Assembly (NCBI GenBank): GCA_902773055.1
Contig: CACYCZ010000016.1
Span: 1-64,000, forward strand
From: an uncultured Bacteroidales bacterium
GTDB lineage: Bacteria; Bacteroidota; Bacteroidia; Bacteroidales; Bacteroidaceae
Direction: 5' to 3'
Length of the DNA: 64,000 nucleotides
Shown: piece by piece, positions 666 to 58,319 of the stretch
Numbering within the stretch: position 1 is the stretch's first letter
How the letters are laid out: each line of letters begins with the position of its first letter
Notes under the pieces: model-generated
The model's database searches: none
The model's input: only the letters and a program-made list of their open reading frames with translations
What the model was told of the DNA's origin: nothing
Made by a program: the position numbers and the translations under genes

Positions 666-749
666 ATGTTCCGCGTCGCTGAACGTATGTTCACCGATGG
701 TGAACGTATATTTCGCATCGCTGAACATACGTTCACCATCGGGAAACAT
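666..749. repeat. family 1 repeat array, copy A (4 x 21 bp)
   Basis: Four tandem 21-bp units lie at 666-686, 687-707, 708-728 and 729-749. Each unit is an imperfect palindrome with half-sites close to GTTCACC and GGTGAAC around a central triplet. Copies occur at 26539 and 54538. Because 21 bp is seven codons, the array stays open in several frames and produces false ORFs. It sits just upstream of the mscS promoter. Confidence 0.9.
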
Positions 750-25265: not shown

Positions 25266-26414
25266 TTATTTAAGTTCTACAAACGGATTCTCCTGATTGC
25301 CGGTCCACTTATACAGACGCAAGTCGCAATATTGCACCTTATTCTTGGTCTTGCCGTTGTTGGAAATATAATAGTATCCCTGGCCGAGGCTCTCTATGCC
25401 CGTATCGGCCTTGGCATTCCATCCGCGTATGCCCGTGCGGGCATCCTTCATACCATCATCAGCCAGTGTCAGCACCAGCCCTTTCTGCACGGGGTCAAAG
25501 CCTTTCAGCACATCCTTGCGGGCTGCCACCTTGCCATCAATGGCAAAGAGGGAATAATTGGGGAATGCCGGTTTCTTGCCGTTATACACACCGAGCAGCC
25601 AATAGCCCTTGTAGGCATCATACTCCATATTCTGCACACCCCAGTTGGTGTTGCCTGTATAGGCAAAGAAATATTTGTCAGCCTTCTTGGGGCCATACTT
25701 GTGGAAAGATGTCAGGGGCCGTGCCTTAGCCTCCAGTTTGGCAGGGTCATACTGCAGCAGCACCTGATAGTCGTTGTCGGCACGGTTGACGTCGCTGTAT
25801 ATGCCCAGTGCCACGTTGAGGACCTTCTTGCCTGAAGTCTTGCCAAACTGCGGACCCACGGAGACGCCGTCTATACCGCTGCAGCCATATTTGTGGTCAT
25901 AGGTCTGGCCTGCGTTGCGCACCTTGCTCTCATACATGTCCACAACCTCCTTAAGATAAGCAGCCTTCAGCACGCCGCCCGTTGCGGCCTCAATGTCGGG
26001 ACGGGTTATCTTGCGGGTGTCAAATATTCCGATATAGAACGAGTTGGCCCTTGACTTGGCGGCAGCGCCTGAGATTCCCTGACCAATGGCGTCATCCTTA
26101 TACTCCATGGAGCCATACAGCTTGCCTGTCTCTGCGTCCAGTTCAATACATCCCAAGTGGCAGGTCAGACCTACCACGGAGCCCAGCAGACGTCCCTCGT
26201 AATCGGTCTTGATGAGACTGGTCGTAAAGGAAAAATAAACGCACTTGTTCTTTACATCTACAGCTACGCCCTGAACATGGTGTTTACCTATTTCATAATA
26301 CACGCGCGAGGGCAGCTTGCCAAACGGGGTGTCCACCCAGGTCATTTCACTCTTAGCCTGACCGGCCAATGCACTCAGTGCCACAAGGGCAACCATCATA
26401 AATCTACGAATCAT
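25266..26414 (-). CDS. secreted protein of unknown function, possible beta-propeller
   Basis: I do not recognise this 382-residue protein. It has a signal peptide (about 1-20) and repeated short units such as VAVDVKNKCVYFSF, GCIELDAETGKLYGS and MEYDAYKGYWLLGVYNG, each a likely four-stranded blade, which suggests a beta-propeller. Its stop is 7 bp before the tandem SGNH hydrolase start, so it may recognise or process the same substrate. A TAATTTTG promoter element lies at 26445-26452 on the minus strand. Confidence 0.7.
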   Translation of the reverse strand: MIRRFMMVALVALSALAGQAKSEMTWVDTPFGKLPSRVYYEIGKHHVQGVAVDVKNKCVYFSFTTSLIKTDYEGRLLGSVVGLTCHLGCIELDAETGKLYGSMEYKDDAIGQGISGAAAKSRANSFYIGIFDTRKITRPDIEAATGGVLKAAYLKEVVDMYESKVRNAGQTYDHKYGCSGIDGVSVGPQFGKTSGKKVLNVALGIYSDVNRADNDYQVLLQYDPAKLEAKARPLTSFHKYGPKKADKYFFAYTGNTNWGVQNMEYDAYKGYWLLGVYNGKKPAFPNYSLFAIDGKVAARKDVLKGFDPVQKGLVLTLADDGMKDARTGIRGWNAKADTGIESLGQGYYYISNNGKTKNKVQYCDLRLYKWTGNQENPFVELK

Positions 26415-26538
26415 ATGTTCAATATTTTATATTCACTTTAGCACAAAATTACTTCATTTTGCGGAAAGAGCACCATATTGCCCTAAGAAAAAACAGACTG
26501 CAGGGCGACGGCATGATATCTTCATCCCGATAAAGTTT

Positions 26539-26622
26539 ATGTTCCCCGTCGCTGAACGTATGTTTACCGATGCTGAACGTACATTCACCGACGGTAAACA
26601 TACGTTCAGCATCGGGGAATAT
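26539..26622. repeat. family 1 repeat array, copy B (4 x 21 bp)
   Basis: Units are at 26539-26559, 26560-26580, 26581-26601 and 26602-26622. Units 1 and 2 differ from copy A by only one and two bases. It lies upstream of the propeller-SGNH operon, 125 bp before its start codon. Confidence 0.9.
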
Positions 26623-26758
26623 AAAATATCCCGGGGAATTGCAGGATTTCTGACACCCCGGCATAAACTTTCTCACGCAGGGACACAGCATCAACCCCGC
26701 CACAGTAGTTTCAGGACAATTCCTATACGGATACCCGTGAAAGCTGTAACCGGTCAGG

Positions 26759-26820: not shown

Positions 26821-27714
26821 CTACATATTCGCACCCGATGTTTCAGGGGCTTCCTCTATCAGGTCCATGAACTGGTCAAGTTTCGGCGTAATGATAATCT
26901 GGGTGCGGCGGTTACGCTGCTTGCCTATTTCGGAGCTGTTGCTGGCCACGGGATTATATTCGCCACGACCGCCGGCAGTGAGCCGCTGAGGATCTACGCC
27001 ATACTCATTCTGCAAGGCCTGCACGACTGACGATGCACGCAGACAGCTCAAATCCCAGTTGTTACGGATATTGGGGCGCGAGATAGGCACATCGTCGGTA
27101 TTGCCTTCTATCAACACTTCATACTCCTTATAGTCCTTGATGATCTTGGCTATCTTGCTCAGGGTTTCACTTGCACGCGAATTGATTTCATAGCTGCCCG
27201 ACTTGTAGAGCATGTTGTCGGCAAGCGAGATATATACAACACCCTTCAGCACCTGGACATCAACCTCCTGCTTCTCGGCATTGGTCAGCGAGCGGGTCAG
27301 GTTGTTGGTCAGAACGATGTTGAGTGAGTCACTCTTATCCTTGGCCTCAACCAACTGCTTGATAAAGCGGTTGGACGCATTGATTTCATCCACCAGTTTG
27401 GAAATATTCACATTACCCTGGGAATTCTGCTGCAGGCTCTTGTCCAGGGAACCCTGCAAATCCTTGTATGCCTGCTTCAGTTCTGCATTGCGCTTCTTCT
27501 CGGCATCAAGCAAATCCTGAAGGCTCTTGATACTGGCGCCTTTCTCTGTCAGTTTTATCTGGCAACTGTTGTTCTCTTCCTTCAGAGAGGCTATCTCCGA
27601 TTTCAAGGCATCGTTTTCAGACCTCAGAGCCTGAAACTCCTTCTTGCTTATGCAACTGCTGGTGAACCCAACCGTCACCGCGATGGCAAAAAGCCATAGA
27701 TTCTTCTGTTTCAT
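26821..27714 (-). CDS. OmpA-family lipoprotein with coiled coil
   Basis: The protein of 297 residues has a lipoprotein signal (FTSSC, Cys21), a long coiled coil (about 25-130, FQALRSENDALKSEIASLKEEN) and a C-terminal OmpA peptidoglycan-binding domain (about 165-280: YEVLIEGNTDDVPIS, NWDLSCLRASSVVQAL, GGRGEYNPVASN, RNRRTQIII). It probably anchors the outer membrane to the cell wall. It is a single-gene unit. Confidence 0.9.
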   Translation of the reverse strand: MKQKNLWLFAIAVTVGFTSSCISKKEFQALRSENDALKSEIASLKEENNSCQIKLTEKGASIKSLQDLLDAEKKRNAELKQAYKDLQGSLDKSLQQNSQGNVNISKLVDEINASNRFIKQLVEAKDKSDSLNIVLTNNLTRSLTNAEKQEVDVQVLKGVVYISLADNMLYKSGSYEINSRASETLSKIAKIIKDYKEYEVLIEGNTDDVPISRPNIRNNWDLSCLRASSVVQALQNEYGVDPQRLTAGGRGEYNPVASNSSEIGKQRNRRTQIIITPKLDQFMDLIEEAPETSGANM

Positions 27715-52051: not shown

Positions 52052-52960
52052 ATGGATAATTTTTTAGAAATATCACACGTAAGCAAACGTTTTGTCAACC
52101 ATGTTGCGCTTGACGACGTAAGCATGGACATTCCCCGTGGCAAGGTCTTCGGGCTCCTGGGCCCCAACGGAGCAGGCAAGACGACTCTTATCAGGATTAT
52201 CAATCATATCACTATGGCTGATGCCGGACAAGTCATGTTTGACGGACATCCTCTGTGTGGGCACGATGTCTATGACATCGGCTACCTCCCTGAGGAACGC
52301 GGTCTGTACAAAAAGATGAAGGTCGGCGAGCAGGCTGTATATCTGGCCCGCCTCAAGGGGCTGTCTGCCGCAGAGGCAAAAAAGAGGCTGAAAGAATGGT
52401 TTGAGAAATTCAACATCGGCGACTGGTGGGACCGCAAGGTGGAGGAACTGTCAAAAGGCATGCAGCAGAAAGTGCAGTTTATCATCACCGTGCTGCACCG
52501 TCCACAACTGATGATTCTCGACGAACCGTTCAGTGGCTTTGACCCCAACAATGCCGACCTGCTGAAAAGAGAAATCATGGAACTGCGCAACCAGGGACAC
52601 ACTATCCTGTTTTCCACCCACAACATGGCTTCCGTAGAGGAGATTTGCGACAACATCGCCCTGATAGACCATTCACGCGTTGTCCTGCAGGGAGATGTCG
52701 ACGATGTAAAGAACCGCTACAAGGACAACACCTACCATCTTGTCATTCCGGCAGAGAGCGAGCTCCACGATGTTGAAATACTTTCCCAAGAGCAAAAGAG
52801 AAGCCGGAAATATCTGATCATACAGAAGCCCTCCGAAGAGACTAACAGCCAATTTATTGAGCGTCTGTCCCAACAAACTGAGATAGCTGGTTTCACGGAG
52901 CGTATGCCCAGTATGGATGAGATATTCCTGCGTGTTGTACGAAACGGTGAGATCAAGTAA
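52052..52960 (+). CDS. ABC exporter ATP-binding protein (NatA-like)
   Basis: The protein of 302 residues has Walker A GPNGAGKT, the signature ELSKGMQQKVQ and Walker B LMILDEPFSGFD with STHN, and a C-terminal domain (from about 210) like that of NatA-type sodium or drug exporters. It pairs with the permease that begins 38 bp later. Confidence 0.88.
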   Translation: MDNFLEISHVSKRFVNHVALDDVSMDIPRGKVFGLLGPNGAGKTTLIRIINHITMADAGQVMFDGHPLCGHDVYDIGYLPEERGLYKKMKVGEQAVYLARLKGLSAAEAKKRLKEWFEKFNIGDWWDRKVEELSKGMQQKVQFIITVLHRPQLMILDEPFSGFDPNNADLLKREIMELRNQGHTILFSTHNMASVEEICDNIALIDHSRVVLQGDVDDVKNRYKDNTYHLVIPAESELHDVEILSQEQKRSRKYLIIQKPSEETNSQFIERLSQQTEIAGFTERMPSMDEIFLRVVRNGEIK

Positions 52961-52997
52961 CTTTTCCCTCCTAAAATCTTCAAAAAAAGAAAATCCG

Positions 52998-54299
52998 ATG
53001 AACAAGATATTTATTGTCATAGAGCGCGAGTTCATGACGCGCATCCGCAAGAAATCCTTCATCCTGCTGACCATCCTGATGCCCCTGCTCTTCGCCGGTG
53101 TTGTTGCCTTGCCCGTTCTGTTGTCTTCGATTGACAACGACGAGACCTTCACAGTTGCCTTGATAGACCATACGGGCAAGTATGCCCCCCTGCTGAAGGA
53201 CAGCGGCAAAGTCCATATCGTTCCCGTTGAGGAGCTTACGCCGGATGTCCGTTCCAAAGAGAGCGACTACACGGCCGTCATAGTCATCAGCCGTGACCTG
53301 TCACAAGACTCCACAGGGGCAACCATCTATTCCCACAAAGAGGTCCCCGTAGACATCACCCAGTATTTCAACTCTGTCATCAGGGAAGACATCAGGTCAG
53401 CCCGTCTGGCAACATACAATATTCCTGACATTGACCGCATCATTGCCGCAAGCCAGGTAGACTACTCCGTCCCCACGGTCAAGTGGACCGATGACGGCAC
53501 CGAGAAGAAGTCCAGCTATGAACTTGCCGGCGTTCTCGGTATGGTACTCACCATGCTCATCTACATCTTCGTCCTGTCCTATGGCGGCATGGTGATGCAG
53601 GGAGTCATGGAGGAAAAGACCAACCGCATCATGGAAATCATGGTGTCATCCGTCAAGCCCTTCCAGCTGATGATGGGCAAGATTATCGGCATTGCCTTGG
53701 TGGGATTGGCCCAATTCCTGATATGGGGTGTACTCATCATGGTCATCATGGTTGTGGCCGGCACTCTGGCAGGCGGCGACATGGATACCTCCCAGGCTAT
53801 GGCCATGGCAGGCAACATGCAGGGTGTCCCCATGCCTCAGTCGCCCCAGTCCGAGTTACTGCAAGTCATCCAAGGCATGAACCTGGGTGAAATCTTCATC
53901 ATGTTCATCCTTTACTTCATCGGAGGATATCTCCTCTATGCCTCATTCTTTGCAGCCATAGGCGCCTCCGTCAATGAACAGGCCGATTCGTCCCAGTTCA
54001 TGATGCCCATTGTCATCCTGATGATTTTCGCCCTCTATGCCGGCATGTTCAGCATCCAGAACCCCGATGGCCCGCTGGCCCTCTGGTGCTCCTATATCCC
54101 GCTGACCTCGCCCATCGTCATGATGGTGCGCCTGCCCTTCGGTGTCCCTGCATGGCAGTTGCTGCTGTCCCTATTCCTGTTGTATGCCACGGCAATAGCA
54201 GTAGTATGGCTGAGTGCAAAAATCTATCGCGTAGGCATCCTGATGTACGGTCGCAAGCCTACACCTCGCGACCTGATCCGCTGGATAAGGTTCAAGTAA
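52998..54299 (+). CDS. ABC-2 permease (NatB-like)
   Basis: The protein of 433 residues has an N-terminal membrane helix (about 22-42), a periplasmic domain (to about 190) and five or six C-terminal helices with MVMQGVMEEKTNRIMEIMVSSVKPFQLMMGKI, the ABC-2 signature. The ATG at 52998 (MNKIFIVIEREF) gives the usual start; the frame is open back into the ATPase gene. It exports an unknown substrate. Confidence 0.88.
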   Translation: MNKIFIVIEREFMTRIRKKSFILLTILMPLLFAGVVALPVLLSSIDNDETFTVALIDHTGKYAPLLKDSGKVHIVPVEELTPDVRSKESDYTAVIVISRDLSQDSTGATIYSHKEVPVDITQYFNSVIREDIRSARLATYNIPDIDRIIAASQVDYSVPTVKWTDDGTEKKSSYELAGVLGMVLTMLIYIFVLSYGGMVMQGVMEEKTNRIMEIMVSSVKPFQLMMGKIIGIALVGLAQFLIWGVLIMVIMVVAGTLAGGDMDTSQAMAMAGNMQGVPMPQSPQSELLQVIQGMNLGEIFIMFILYFIGGYLLYASFFAAIGASVNEQADSSQFMMPIVILMIFALYAGMFSIQNPDGPLALWCSYIPLTSPIVMMVRLPFGVPAWQLLLSLFLLYATAIAVVWLSAKIYRVGILMYGRKPTPRDLIRWIRFK

Positions 54300-54537: not shown

Positions 54538-54621
54538 ACATTCACCAATGGTAAACATACATTCAGCATCGTTGAACATACGTTCACCGTCGGTGAATGT
54601 ATGTTCCGCAACGGTGAACAT
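54538..54621. repeat. family 1 repeat array, copy C (4 x 21 bp)
   Basis: Units lie at 54538-54558, 54559-54579, 54580-54600 and 54601-54621. They are more diverged from copies A and B but keep the unit length, the palindromic GTTCACC/GGTGAAC core and the number of units. It is the only copy between convergent genes. Confidence 0.88.
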
Positions 54622-54787: not shown

Positions 54788-57700
54788 CTATAGGCGGCGG
54801 TTGCCCAAACGTATCTGATTGCCGTTACGACCGGTATTGTTGCCATTGCGGTTGCCATTATTGTATCCGTTCCGGTTGTTCTGTCCGTTGCGCATTTGGT
54901 TACGCTGCCCTTTCTGGTTATTGCGAGCCATCTGCCGTTTGCTGCGCAGGGTATTGAAGTTATACTGGAACGACAGCAGGTAGTAGTTGCGCAGCATCAG
55001 CTGCTTTGTATCACTGATACTGAGGGAATTGATGGTACGCATAATATTGGTGCGCTGATGCAGGATATCGAATATCTGGAACGACAGCATGCCGGCATTA
55101 TGCTTGAACAGACGCTTAGTAAGCTGGGCATTCCATACACAGATATTTTTCTGTATACTTGACGAATATCCGTGGCGACTGTTGAAGTTGGCTGTTGTCG
55201 ACAACTGGGAATTCAGCGGCAGCTCAACCTGCATGTTGGCACTGGCATTATAGTCAAAGGTTTCACGCGACAGGCCGTTTCTCACACTATTGTGTACTCT
55301 GTAATAGGACACACTGCCCGACACGCGCCAAGAGAACTGCTTAAGGCGATAGCGGAGTGCCACCGACTGGAACAGACGCACAGAACTGGTATGGTTGATG
55401 CGCGCCTCGTCGCGCAGCTTGTCTATATCTTCAAAGGCCAAATCCTGCAGCGATGTAATGCCGAGCTGGTGGAGTTTTCTGTTGGACAACGGTGTAGAGT
55501 TGAAGTTAGTGTTTTCATTGTACGACCCCGATGAAACGGTTGACAGGTTCCAACGCTGGAGACTGTCAAGAGGGGTGTTGAAGTTGATATTGCCGTTCAT
55601 GTTCCACTGACCGTCAACATTCATCAGTTTGGAGATGCGAAAACCTGTTGCCGACTCAGAAAATGACATGGTAGATGTGGCATTGCTCGTATTGGTATAT
55701 CCCCAGTTGGTCACAAGACTGCGGTGAGATTTCTCGCCATACATGTTGAACGTGGCGTTAAACCGGTGGGTAAACATGGGCTTAAGGTTAGGGTTACCGT
55801 AACGTACGTACTGGGGATTGGTCTTGTCAATCAGTTCCTGAAGCTGCTCGACATTGGCCTCGGTACTAGTGCCGTTATAAGTAAGGTCAAGACTGTTGCG
55901 CTTGGTGAAACGGTACTTCAGGTGGATATTAGGAGCCCAGTTCTTCAGGTCTTGTTTCACGAGCCCCTTGTCCATGCGCTGGCCCAGGATATAGTTGGAC
56001 TCATTGTGACGGGGATTGAAATGCACGCCATAGTTCAGATTCAGTTTCTGCGTCAGATGGCGCATGCTGATATTGAATGAATGAGAGGAATAAACATTGT
56101 TTGTAATATTGCTCAGGGTCGTATCAATCTCCAAGGAGTCCCAATTGATGTCAGAGATGACCAGGTCCTGGTCATCGGGATCGTGACTGTACTCGTAGCC
56201 CATGCGGTGGGTTCGCGACTTGCTGTAACTGAAATTGTAGCGCAATTGCAGATAGGTCTTTTTGAAAAGTGGCTCGGTATAGTTGAAACCCGCCGTATAA
56301 TTGAAGTGATAGGTGCCTCCGTCGATAAAACGGTCATAGTTCCTGTTGAGCCCGGGCCGCAGGTTATAGGTTGCAAAATTGCGCACGTTGGTCGTATTGT
56401 CATTGTCACTGTAGCTCACCGAACCGTTGAAGGAGATATTTCTTCCGTGAGGGTTCAGCCTGCGGAAAAGAAGCATGCTCGTACTCGTGGTAATGCCGTC
56501 CGACTTGTTAACATTCAGAGAATTGGTATTGGTAGTCTGCTGGATAGTATCATTTTCTTCACCCAACCAACGGGAAGCCTGTCCGCGGGAAGAAGAGGAA
56601 CTGTGGGTATCATTGTAGGAAAAATTAGGACGGAGCTGGAGGGTGGTCAGCGTATCGGGATGCCACTCCCACTCAAAGTTGGCATTCAGTTCATGGCGGT
56701 CACGGTCTGAACGGGATTTGTTGTCATTGTAGTATTCGGCACCGCTGGCATACTTGGTTTCCGTATGGCGCTCAGAACTGTTGTCAGCATCCGAGAAGCT
56801 GTAACGCACATTGCCCGATACCTTGTATTTTTTCTTTTTGTCCTTGGCATAGGTAAAGCCCACCGACTTGGACGCCGTGTAGCCCGTGCGCGCCTGGCGC
56901 GAAGCATTGCTGGCACCATTGCCGCGCTCAGAGAAAGCAGGATTGTTTACATTGTTCATATTGACCACGAGAGCAGCGTGCTGGTCACTGCGGAACTTGT
57001 TTACATTGAGGCGCTCGGCATAGCGGTCGTGATTACCCAGTGACAATCCCACATTGCCCACAAGGCCCTTGAACATATCCTTCTTCACCTCAATATCAAT
57101 GACATTATGCTCCTCGCCATCGTCAATACCAGTAAGGCGGGCCCTGTCTGAGCGGCGGTCGTAGGTCTTTATCCTGCGCACTATGTTGGCCGGCAGATTC
57201 TGCAGGGTAGCCGAAACATCATCACCGAAATACTCTTTGCCGTCGATGAGAATCTTGCTGTATTCCTTGCCGTTGATTTTTATCTTGCCGTCCTCTGTAA
57301 TCTCTGCTCCAGGTATCTGGGTAATCAGTTCCTCTGCCATAGCTCCCTCTGATGTAACAAGGGCACTGGCATTATAGGCCACCGTATCATCGGTCACGGT
57401 TACGAGAGGCACCTTCCCCACAATAACTGCCTCACCCAAAGAAAAATCTGTAATGTCAATACGGACAGGATTAGCCGAAATAATAGGCTTGTCTTCAGTC
57501 ACAGTAAACCGCAGGTAGCCCTTGGTGTAGCCAATGGCATCACATTTCAGCAAGTATGAGCCGAAAGGCAAAGATTCAATCTCATATACCCCCAGCGTAT
57601 CGGTTGCCGCACCACCCTTGACAACACTGTCGGGCAGATGAACCGCCCTGACAATGACACCTCCCAAAGGGGCTCCTTCTACATTAGTAACCGTGCCGCT

Positions 57701-57829
57701 GATTCTACCGGACGTGGCATCCAGATTGGCAATTCTTAACGTATCACTCATGGAAACCGGCATACCTTTCAAGACAGAGGAAAACAAAAGGAATACTGCT
57801 GACAGGATATATATCTTATTTCTTAACAC
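54788..57829 (-). CDS. large TonB-dependent-receptor-like outer-membrane protein
   Basis: The protein of 1013 residues has a signal peptide, a carboxypeptidase-like beta domain (about 40-120, ISGTVTNVEGAPLGGVIVRAV), a plug-like domain (about 130-260) and a long barrel (to about 970). The tail (about 970-1013) is rich in Asn, Arg and Gly. No ATG lies at a sensible place: the GTG at 57829 (then LRNKIYILSAVFLLFSS) gives a normal signal peptide, while the ATG at 57973 would overlap the YkvA gene and add 48 poorly conserved-looking residues. The ligand is unknown. Confidence 0.82.
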   Translation of the reverse strand: MLRNKIYILSAVFLLFSSVLKGMPVSMSDTLRIANLDATSGRISGTVTNVEGAPLGGVIVRAVHLPDSVVKGGAATDTLGVYEIESLPFGSYLLKCDAIGYTKGYLRFTVTEDKPIISANPVRIDITDFSLGEAVIVGKVPLVTVTDDTVAYNASALVTSEGAMAEELITQIPGAEITEDGKIKINGKEYSKILIDGKEYFGDDVSATLQNLPANIVRRIKTYDRRSDRARLTGIDDGEEHNVIDIEVKKDMFKGLVGNVGLSLGNHDRYAERLNVNKFRSDQHAALVVNMNNVNNPAFSERGNGASNASRQARTGYTASKSVGFTYAKDKKKKYKVSGNVRYSFSDADNSSERHTETKYASGAEYYNDNKSRSDRDRHELNANFEWEWHPDTLTTLQLRPNFSYNDTHSSSSSRGQASRWLGEENDTIQQTTNTNSLNVNKSDGITTSTSMLLFRRLNPHGRNISFNGSVSYSDNDNTTNVRNFATYNLRPGLNRNYDRFIDGGTYHFNYTAGFNYTEPLFKKTYLQLRYNFSYSKSRTHRMGYEYSHDPDDQDLVISDINWDSLEIDTTLSNITNNVYSSHSFNISMRHLTQKLNLNYGVHFNPRHNESNYILGQRMDKGLVKQDLKNWAPNIHLKYRFTKRNSLDLTYNGTSTEANVEQLQELIDKTNPQYVRYGNPNLKPMFTHRFNATFNMYGEKSHRSLVTNWGYTNTSNATSTMSFSESATGFRISKLMNVDGQWNMNGNINFNTPLDSLQRWNLSTVSSGSYNENTNFNSTPLSNRKLHQLGITSLQDLAFEDIDKLRDEARINHTSSVRLFQSVALRYRLKQFSWRVSGSVSYYRVHNSVRNGLSRETFDYNASANMQVELPLNSQLSTTANFNSRHGYSSSIQKNICVWNAQLTKRLFKHNAGMLSFQIFDILHQRTNIMRTINSLSISDTKQLMLRNYYLLSFQYNFNTLRSKRQMARNNQKGQRNQMRNGQNNRNGYNNGNRNGNNTGRNGNQIRLGNRRL

Positions 57830-57896
57830 AATTTCAGGATTACTCTTTATTATAGGATGACAGGAAAGGGTAAAAGTTAAAAAATATTTTGTGAAT

Positions 57897-58319
57897 TTAT
57901 TTCTTTTTTTGCGTGCGCTGCCGACGCCATTGAAAATAACGTTGCAACTCCTTGTCTGCCAAGTGAAGAGCATAGGTTATCAAAGCCGCATCATCCAGCA
58001 ATCCAATACCGGTCAGAAAATCGGGTATCACGTCAAGCGGAGAAACGACATATAGCAATACAGCCACGATAAACACCAGTTTGCCGTAATGATAATCCTT
58101 GTACAACCCGCAGGATATATCTTTGACATAGTAATACAGCAATATCATGTCCTTGAAAACCGGACCGAGTGAACGACGCTTGAAAAAAAACAACAACGCC
58201 GCCAGCAATGATTTCATCTTTTTGCTGTCGGCGACATATTCGGCGGCATCTTTCTGCCATCGACCTTCCCGGAACTGACGAATTACCTCTTGTTTAACAT
58301 TCTGCAACCGTGCATTCAT
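57897..58319 (-). CDS. YkvA-family (DUF1232) membrane protein
   Basis: The protein of 140 residues has the DUF1232 core VFIVAVLLYVVSPLDVIPDFLTGIGLLDDAALI with two membrane-associated helices. Function is not established. It lies 16 bp after the chromate transporter pair on the same strand. Confidence 0.85.
   Translation of the reverse strand: MNARLQNVKQEVIRQFREGRWQKDAAEYVADSKKMKSLLAALLFFFKRRSLGPVFKDMILLYYYVKDISCGLYKDYHYGKLVFIVAVLLYVVSPLDVIPDFLTGIGLLDDAALITYALHLADKELQRYFQWRRQRTQKKK

What the first reader, a model, noticed from the sequence alone, without database searches (positions are those of the whole stretch)
666..749. Family 1: tandem 21-bp palindromes, four units each, at three intergenic loci
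Four 21-bp units at 666, 26539 and 54538 share length, unit number and a GTTCACC/GGTGAAC palindromic core, yet vary in the central bases. Constant copy number at separate loci suggests a defined element, such as a REP/BIME-like palindrome or a multi-site operator, not chance. Each array could fold into four small hairpins or one longer one. I know of no described function.
Basis: seen in the sequence. Interest (0 to 1): 0.62.

Follow-up and report, generated by a model that had tools for sequence, protein, structure and literature searches.

The report
Evenly spaced HU-protein operator arrays
The three repeats are members of a family of about 80-90 evenly spaced, four-site DNA arrays that are probably docking sites for one histone-like (HU-type) DNA-binding protein, whose own gene carries the same array in its promoter region, and related gut bacteria keep the layout of the array while each uses its own site sequence.

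Summary
In detail: four pseudo-palindromic units at exactly 21 bp, at three intergenic places. It is the tip of a large family. In the window's genome 68 of 68 complete arrays read have four units at 21-bp spacing; about 80-90 arrays exist, all intergenic, and never closer than about 6.6 kb. They are not REP/BIME hairpins: no Y1 transposase was found, and covariation argues against base pairing. Instead, the genome's single full-length HU-HIG + winged-helix gene (206 aa) has such an array 35 bp before its start. In 58 such genes from related bacteria, 56 have an upstream array with 21-bp (51) or 22-bp (5) period; control windows peak at 21 in 4 of 85. Each lineage has its own core sequence, and dispersed arrays match the array beside their own genome's protein (23 of 30 first-ranked among 22). 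Sister species G004 has the same architecture and flanking motif but a different core. Best reading: four-site operators for a site-specific HU-type protein that controls itself and marks or organises the chromosome at regular intervals. Binding is strongly implied but not shown; the architectural role is inferred. I found no description of the arrays in the open-access literature searched.

The parts
668..747 (.). array 1: four 17-bp pseudo-palindromic units at 668, 689, 710, 731 (21-bp period), upstream of a mechanosensitive-channel gene (874-1797 +); better-scoring orientation is the minus strand
26541..26620 (.). array 2: four units at 26541, 26562, 26583, 26604; between an OmpA-family gene (26821-27714 -) and a 382-aa gene (25266-26414 -)
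   Evidence: the orthologue of 25266-26414 in sister species G004 also has a four-unit array (other core) at the same side, 155 bp away
54540..54619 (.). array 3: four units at 54540, 54561, 54582, 54603; between an ABC-2 membrane protein gene (52917-54299 +) and an outer-membrane beta-barrel gene (54788-57973 -)
   Evidence: the orthologue of 52917-54299 in G004 also has a four-unit array 78 bp from its end
26521..26540 (.). conserved flank of array 2 (CCCGATAAAGTTTAT type); motif CCGATA-N2-TTTT next to the array and its inverse on the other side recur in G000 and G004
26621..26640 (.). opposite inverted flank of array 2 (ATAAAATAT.CGGG type)

Best explanation
Each array is a composite operator: four sites on one face of the DNA (21 bp is about two helical turns) for one protein made of an HU/IHF-type domain (Pfam HU-HIG) fused to a C-terminal winged helix-turn-helix. 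The winged helix probably reads the lineage-specific core; the HU domain probably bends the DNA and assembles the complex. The array before the protein's own gene would give autoregulation, which is probably the basal, widespread function. In this species the arrays have multiplied to about 80-90 intergenic places at 6.6-36 kb spacing, where the complexes probably act as regularly spaced chromosome-organising or domain-marking sites rather than as ordinary promoters. Shown: array anatomy, copy number, spacing, gene-array adjacency and core matching. Inferred: binding, bending, autoregulation and the architectural role. My estimates: cognate binding 0.85, autoregulation 0.75, chromosome-scale role 0.45.
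For: (1) G000 has one full-length HU-HIG-wHTH gene (C116:9554-10171) with a four-unit array ending 35 bp upstream. (2) The best self-match lag upstream of such genes is 21 bp in 36 of 38 and 15 of 20 genes (22 bp in 5 of the other 7); control windows 4 of 85, no peak downstream. (3) Strong full-length protein in 27 of 29 array-bearing genomes against 5 of 27 without the standard array (Fisher 1e-8, not phylogenetically corrected). (4) Dispersed arrays rank their own genome's protein-adjacent array first in 23 of 30 cases (1.4 expected); one mismatched G205 array fits the array of a second G205 paralogue fetched afterwards, and G175 has two array families beside two proteins. (5) wHTH divergence tracks core divergence (Mantel r 0.23, p 0.007), the HU part does not (p 0.19). 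(6) Predicted fold: HU/IHF-like plus winged helix. (7) Unit bases TT, AA (positions 2, 3, 15, 16) vary in at most 1 of 272 units while neighbours vary freely, as for a protein site. (8) Spacing: no second array within about 4 kb of 67 arrays (14.9 expected, P 3.5e-7); smallest gap 6.6 kb, never reached in 20,000 random placements; CV 0.45 against 0.86. (9) Arrays lie between genes of every orientation, convergent included.
Against: No binding, bending or expression data. The Mantel correlation is weak. Two array-bearing genomes (G017, G320) show no full-length protein, and the G097 dispersed core fits neither fetched G097 protein locus. Even spacing could also come from insertion immunity or from selection against nearby repeats. 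Conservation of array positions between G000 and G004 is not significant in the sample tested (p about 0.23).
Confidence: 0.68

Rival explanations
1. The arrays are operators of an ordinary transcription regulon: the protein is a repressor or activator of the genes next to each array, with an IHF-like architectural helper domain and no chromosome-scale role.
For: Array lies in the promoter region of its own gene; some arrays, such as window arrays 1 and 2, lie 126-127 bp before a gene.
Against: Arrays occur between convergent genes as well as divergent ones (9 of 58 scored); flanking genes have no common theme and hardly any shared families; regular spacing is not expected of a regulon.
Confidence: 0.2
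2. The arrays are a non-autonomous mobile element (about 200 bp with inverted arms) that spreads by an unknown enzyme, the HU-HIG-wHTH protein being its accessory factor; the even spacing reflects insertion immunity.
For: Inverted conserved arms outside the array; G017 has a shorter intergenic region without an array at the array-2 locus; copy number varies from 1 to about 90 between related genomes; spacing like transposition immunity.
Against: Copies are only 74% identical on average yet keep strict structure, unlike dead insertions; no target-site duplication seen; no Y1 transposase; only one contig of the viral set holds the array pattern, and protein matches on phage and plasmid records are few and distant. 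Other transposase families were not searched.
Confidence: 0.2
3. REP/BIME-type hairpins acting at the RNA or single-strand DNA level (terminators, mRNA stabilisers).
For: Consensus unit and whole array are palindromic; flanks resemble T-rich tails.
Against: Pairing within units below all shuffles and no covariation in the whole-array fold; no RAYT; no Rfam match in the window; present in divergent as well as convergent regions.
Confidence: 0.04
4. The dispersed arrays are decoys that titrate the autoregulated protein, setting its free level by copy number, with no local action.
For: Autoregulatory array plus many sites of the same type elsewhere.
Against: Does not explain minimum spacing of 6.6 kb or the shared flanking motif.
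Confidence: 0.06

Closest known systems
IHF/HU nucleoid proteins (Pfam PF00216) and the HU-HIG clade (PF18291, TIGR01201 HU_rel)
   Same: The cognate protein belongs to PF18291 by sequence and has an HU/IHF-like predicted fold
   Different: Extra C-terminal winged helix; a four-fold 21-bp array at its own gene and dispersed; lineage-specific site sequence
MatP-matS, Noc-NBS, ParB-parS (dispersed sites of site-specific chromosome proteins; from general knowledge)
   Same: One dedicated DNA-binding protein with multiple short palindromic sites along the chromosome
   Different: Those sites are single palindromes with sequence conserved across wide groups and concentrated in particular chromosome regions; here each site is a four-unit array, evenly spaced, and re-coded in each lineage; the protein is HU-based
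REP/BIME/REPIN with RAYT transposase (general knowledge)
   Same: Species-specific intergenic palindromic repeats in many copies with one dedicated gene
   Different: No RAYT, no hairpin covariation, fixed four tandem units
Iteron arrays of plasmid origins (general knowledge)
   Same: Tandem protein sites of about 21-22 bp, two helical turns apart
   Different: Pseudo-palindromic, chromosomal, about 80-90 places, different protein family

Membership tests
HU-HIG / HU_rel protein family (the cognate protein) | HU-HIG domain at or above Pfam's cut-off | tested here: met
   G000 protein 56.0 bits against cut-off 26.2, E 5e-15; seven others
HU-HIG / HU_rel protein family (the cognate protein) | TIGR01201 at or above NCBI's cut-off | tested here: inconclusive
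   seven relatives score 49-103 bits against cut-off 68.6; two reach it; G000 protein not scanned
REP/BIME elements | RAYT (Y1) transposase in the genome | tested here: not met
   PF01797 absent in G000, G004 and G017; control genomes ring
REP/BIME elements | hairpin maintained by compensatory change | tested here: not met
Four-site operator of an HU-HIG-wHTH protein (proposed) | same array in the promoter region of the protein gene | tested here: met
Four-site operator of an HU-HIG-wHTH protein (proposed) | core of dispersed arrays equals core of the protein-adjacent array | tested here: met
   23 of 30 rank 1 among 22; exceptions partly explained by paralogues
Four-site operator of an HU-HIG-wHTH protein (proposed) | protein binds the array | not testable with these tools
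   needs EMSA, DAP-seq or ChIP-seq
Chromosome-organising site system (MatP-matS-like working) | non-random spacing along the chromosome | tested here: met
   minimum gap 6.6 kb, CV 0.45
Chromosome-organising site system (MatP-matS-like working) | effect on chromosome folding or segregation | not testable with these tools
   needs Hi-C or microscopy

The most novel reading that the evidence does not exclude
A new class of bacterial chromosome organisation: a site-specific, autoregulated HU-winged-helix protein that builds a four-site nucleoprotein complex at regular intervals of roughly 7-35 kb, and whose site sequence has been re-coded in concert at dozens of loci in each lineage while the architecture stays fixed.
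Probability: 0.4. Interest if true: 0.92.

Novelty: new variant of a known kind. Interest (0 to 1): 0.8.

Why it matters
HU-HIG proteins occur in many gut Bacteroidales, and Pfam describes them only as DNA-binding fusions. This gives one subfamily a predicted target in each lineage, readable from sequence alone: the 21-bp array upstream of its own gene. That makes target specificity, autoregulation and genome-wide site maps directly testable, including in cultured Bacteroides and Parabacteroides species that carry such genes. If the dispersed arrays organise the chromosome, it would be a regularly spaced boundary-like system in bacteria, and a natural experiment in how dozens of sites can change sequence together with one protein.

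Tried and rejected
Hairpin/REP model. Rfam scan of the window, no match. Coding-repeat explanation: ORFs that span arrays are short open frames created by the 84-bp array; neighbours are ordinary genes. A shared functional theme among flanking genes: none seen. Phage or plasmid origin: one IMG/VR contig with the array pattern, only distant protein matches on Bacteroidales 'plasmid' records that may be chromosomal pieces (one carries recA and clpB), and one weak phage match. Conserved positions between G000 and G004: suggestive for window arrays 2 and 3, not significant overall. A broad protein alignment was too diverse for the named-genome scan; a narrower one returned nine relatives, several from ruminant-gut metagenome-assembled Bacteroidales. 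Literature searches for HU-HIG, HU_rel and Bacteroidales repeat families found nothing describing the arrays; the HU/IHF-clade survey I recall is not held.

Full report
Check of the observation. Against shuffles the palindrome is far beyond chance in the window (22 matches, 0.25 expected), and in the whole genome G000 (2.6 Mb, 153 contigs; the window is contig C16:1-64000) the unit pattern gives 596 matches against 2 for the control. I fetched 67 stretches around arrays. Together with the window they hold 68 complete arrays, and all 68 have exactly four units at exactly 21 bp. A sequence model adds 13 more complete places (my count from the table), and the three-unit pattern gives 170 forward hits, two per array, so about 80-90 arrays exist. 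All appear intergenic, in every gene orientation.

Anatomy. The curious two-letter choice at most variable positions arises largely because an asymmetric unit and its reverse complement are mixed. After orienting, the consensus of the middle units is close to GTTCACCGATGCGAAACATAC. TT and AA at unit positions 2, 3, 15 and 16 are fixed in at least 271 of 272 units, and C7 and G11 nearly so, while other positions vary freely. Outside the array lie inverted arms...CCGATA-N2-TTTT[array]AAAA-N2-TATCGG..., and weaker blocks out to roughly 60 bp, so the element is about 200 bp. Base pairing is not what is conserved: within units it is below all 500 shuffles, and the whole-array hairpin shows no excess covariation.

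Relatives. The exact motif is absent from 60 relatives, but the sequence model finds many arrays in one congener, G004, with the same four-unit 21-bp layout, the same flanking motif and a different core, GTTCCATnnnATGGAAC. A pattern of the layout alone (RTTY-N9-RAAY-RTAN repeated) finds arrays in 30 of 301 genomes of the family, in 9 genera, with one genome hit by the control; each genome has its own core and 1 to about 85 arrays.

The cognate protein. In genomes with few arrays the array sits beside a gene for a protein of about 208 residues with an HU-HIG domain and a winged helix-turn-helix. G000 has exactly one full-length copy at the threshold used, and an array ends 35 bp before its start. 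Upstream regions of 58 such genes peak at a 21-bp self-match lag in 51 and at 22 bp in 5; random windows peak at 21 in 4 of 85, and downstream regions show no peak. This includes genes from Parabacteroides distasonis and Bacteroides finegoldii records. Dispersed arrays match the array of their own genome's protein first in 23 of 30 cases among 22 candidates. One exception, an odd G205 array, matches the array of a second G205 paralogue fetched afterwards as a test; a G097 core remains unexplained. Winged-helix divergence tracks core divergence modestly, the HU part does not. An AlphaFold2 model of a relative (mean pLDDT 75.6, pTM 0.40, so domain placement is uncertain) gives an HU/IHF-like fold and a winged helix.

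Spacing. No stretch around an array holds a second one, although 14.9 would be expected (P 3.5e-7); the smallest known gap is 6.6 kb, which none of 20,000 random placements reached, and the coefficient of variation is 0.45 against 0.86. G004 shows the same trend (0 against 4.5). Caveats: the gap list may miss weak arrays, and the genome is in 153 contigs; the stretch test does not depend on the gap list.

Mechanism. The best-supported reading is an operator array for the HU-HIG-wHTH protein: four sites on one DNA face, core read by the winged helix, DNA bent by the HU part, with autoregulation at the gene's own array. Binding and autoregulation are inferred. For the dispersed arrays, even spacing, indifference to gene orientation and varied neighbours favour a chromosome-scale role over a regulon; insertion immunity of a mobile element is the main rival and is not excluded.

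Known or new. The protein belongs to a described Pfam family; the arrays, their layout, their spacing and their link to the protein were not found in the open-access papers searched. Most subscription papers are not held, so this is weak evidence of novelty. It works like a site-specific chromosome protein with dispersed sites, but it is not a member of MatP, Noc, ParB or REP/RAYT systems.

Noticed in passing
G000 contigs C67, C73, C85, C119 ends (L090, L098, L107, L124): Several arrays near contig ends share more than 150 bp of downstream sequence; in L124 this leads into a small secreted-protein gene (MKQIKQIAFMIITIF...), apparently a recently duplicated promoter-gene unit whose similarity begins at the array's edge.
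   Followed up: partly
L283, L284, L290, L296 (genus g13 paralogues): Upstream repeats of these HU-HIG-wHTH paralogues have a 22-bp instead of a 21-bp period.
   Followed up: no
G097 arrays at C11, C72, C85, C134 (L183): A dispersed core (TTYACCGACGTTGAA type) that matches neither of the two G097 protein-adjacent arrays; a third protein may lie in a missing part of the 87% complete genome.
   Followed up: partly
L154, L156, L162 (G017): A congener without a full-length protein retains only a few arrays of two or three units with yet another core; possibly a decaying system.
   Followed up: no
NZ_OY725932.1, NZ_OY725779.1 (L274, L273): Records labelled plasmids of B. finegoldii and P. distasonis look like chromosome fragments (recA and clpB on the first; the second is 375 kb).
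   Followed up: no
G000 C16:65606-65685, just beyond the window end: A fourth array lies on the same contig 1.6 kb past the window.
   Followed up: yes
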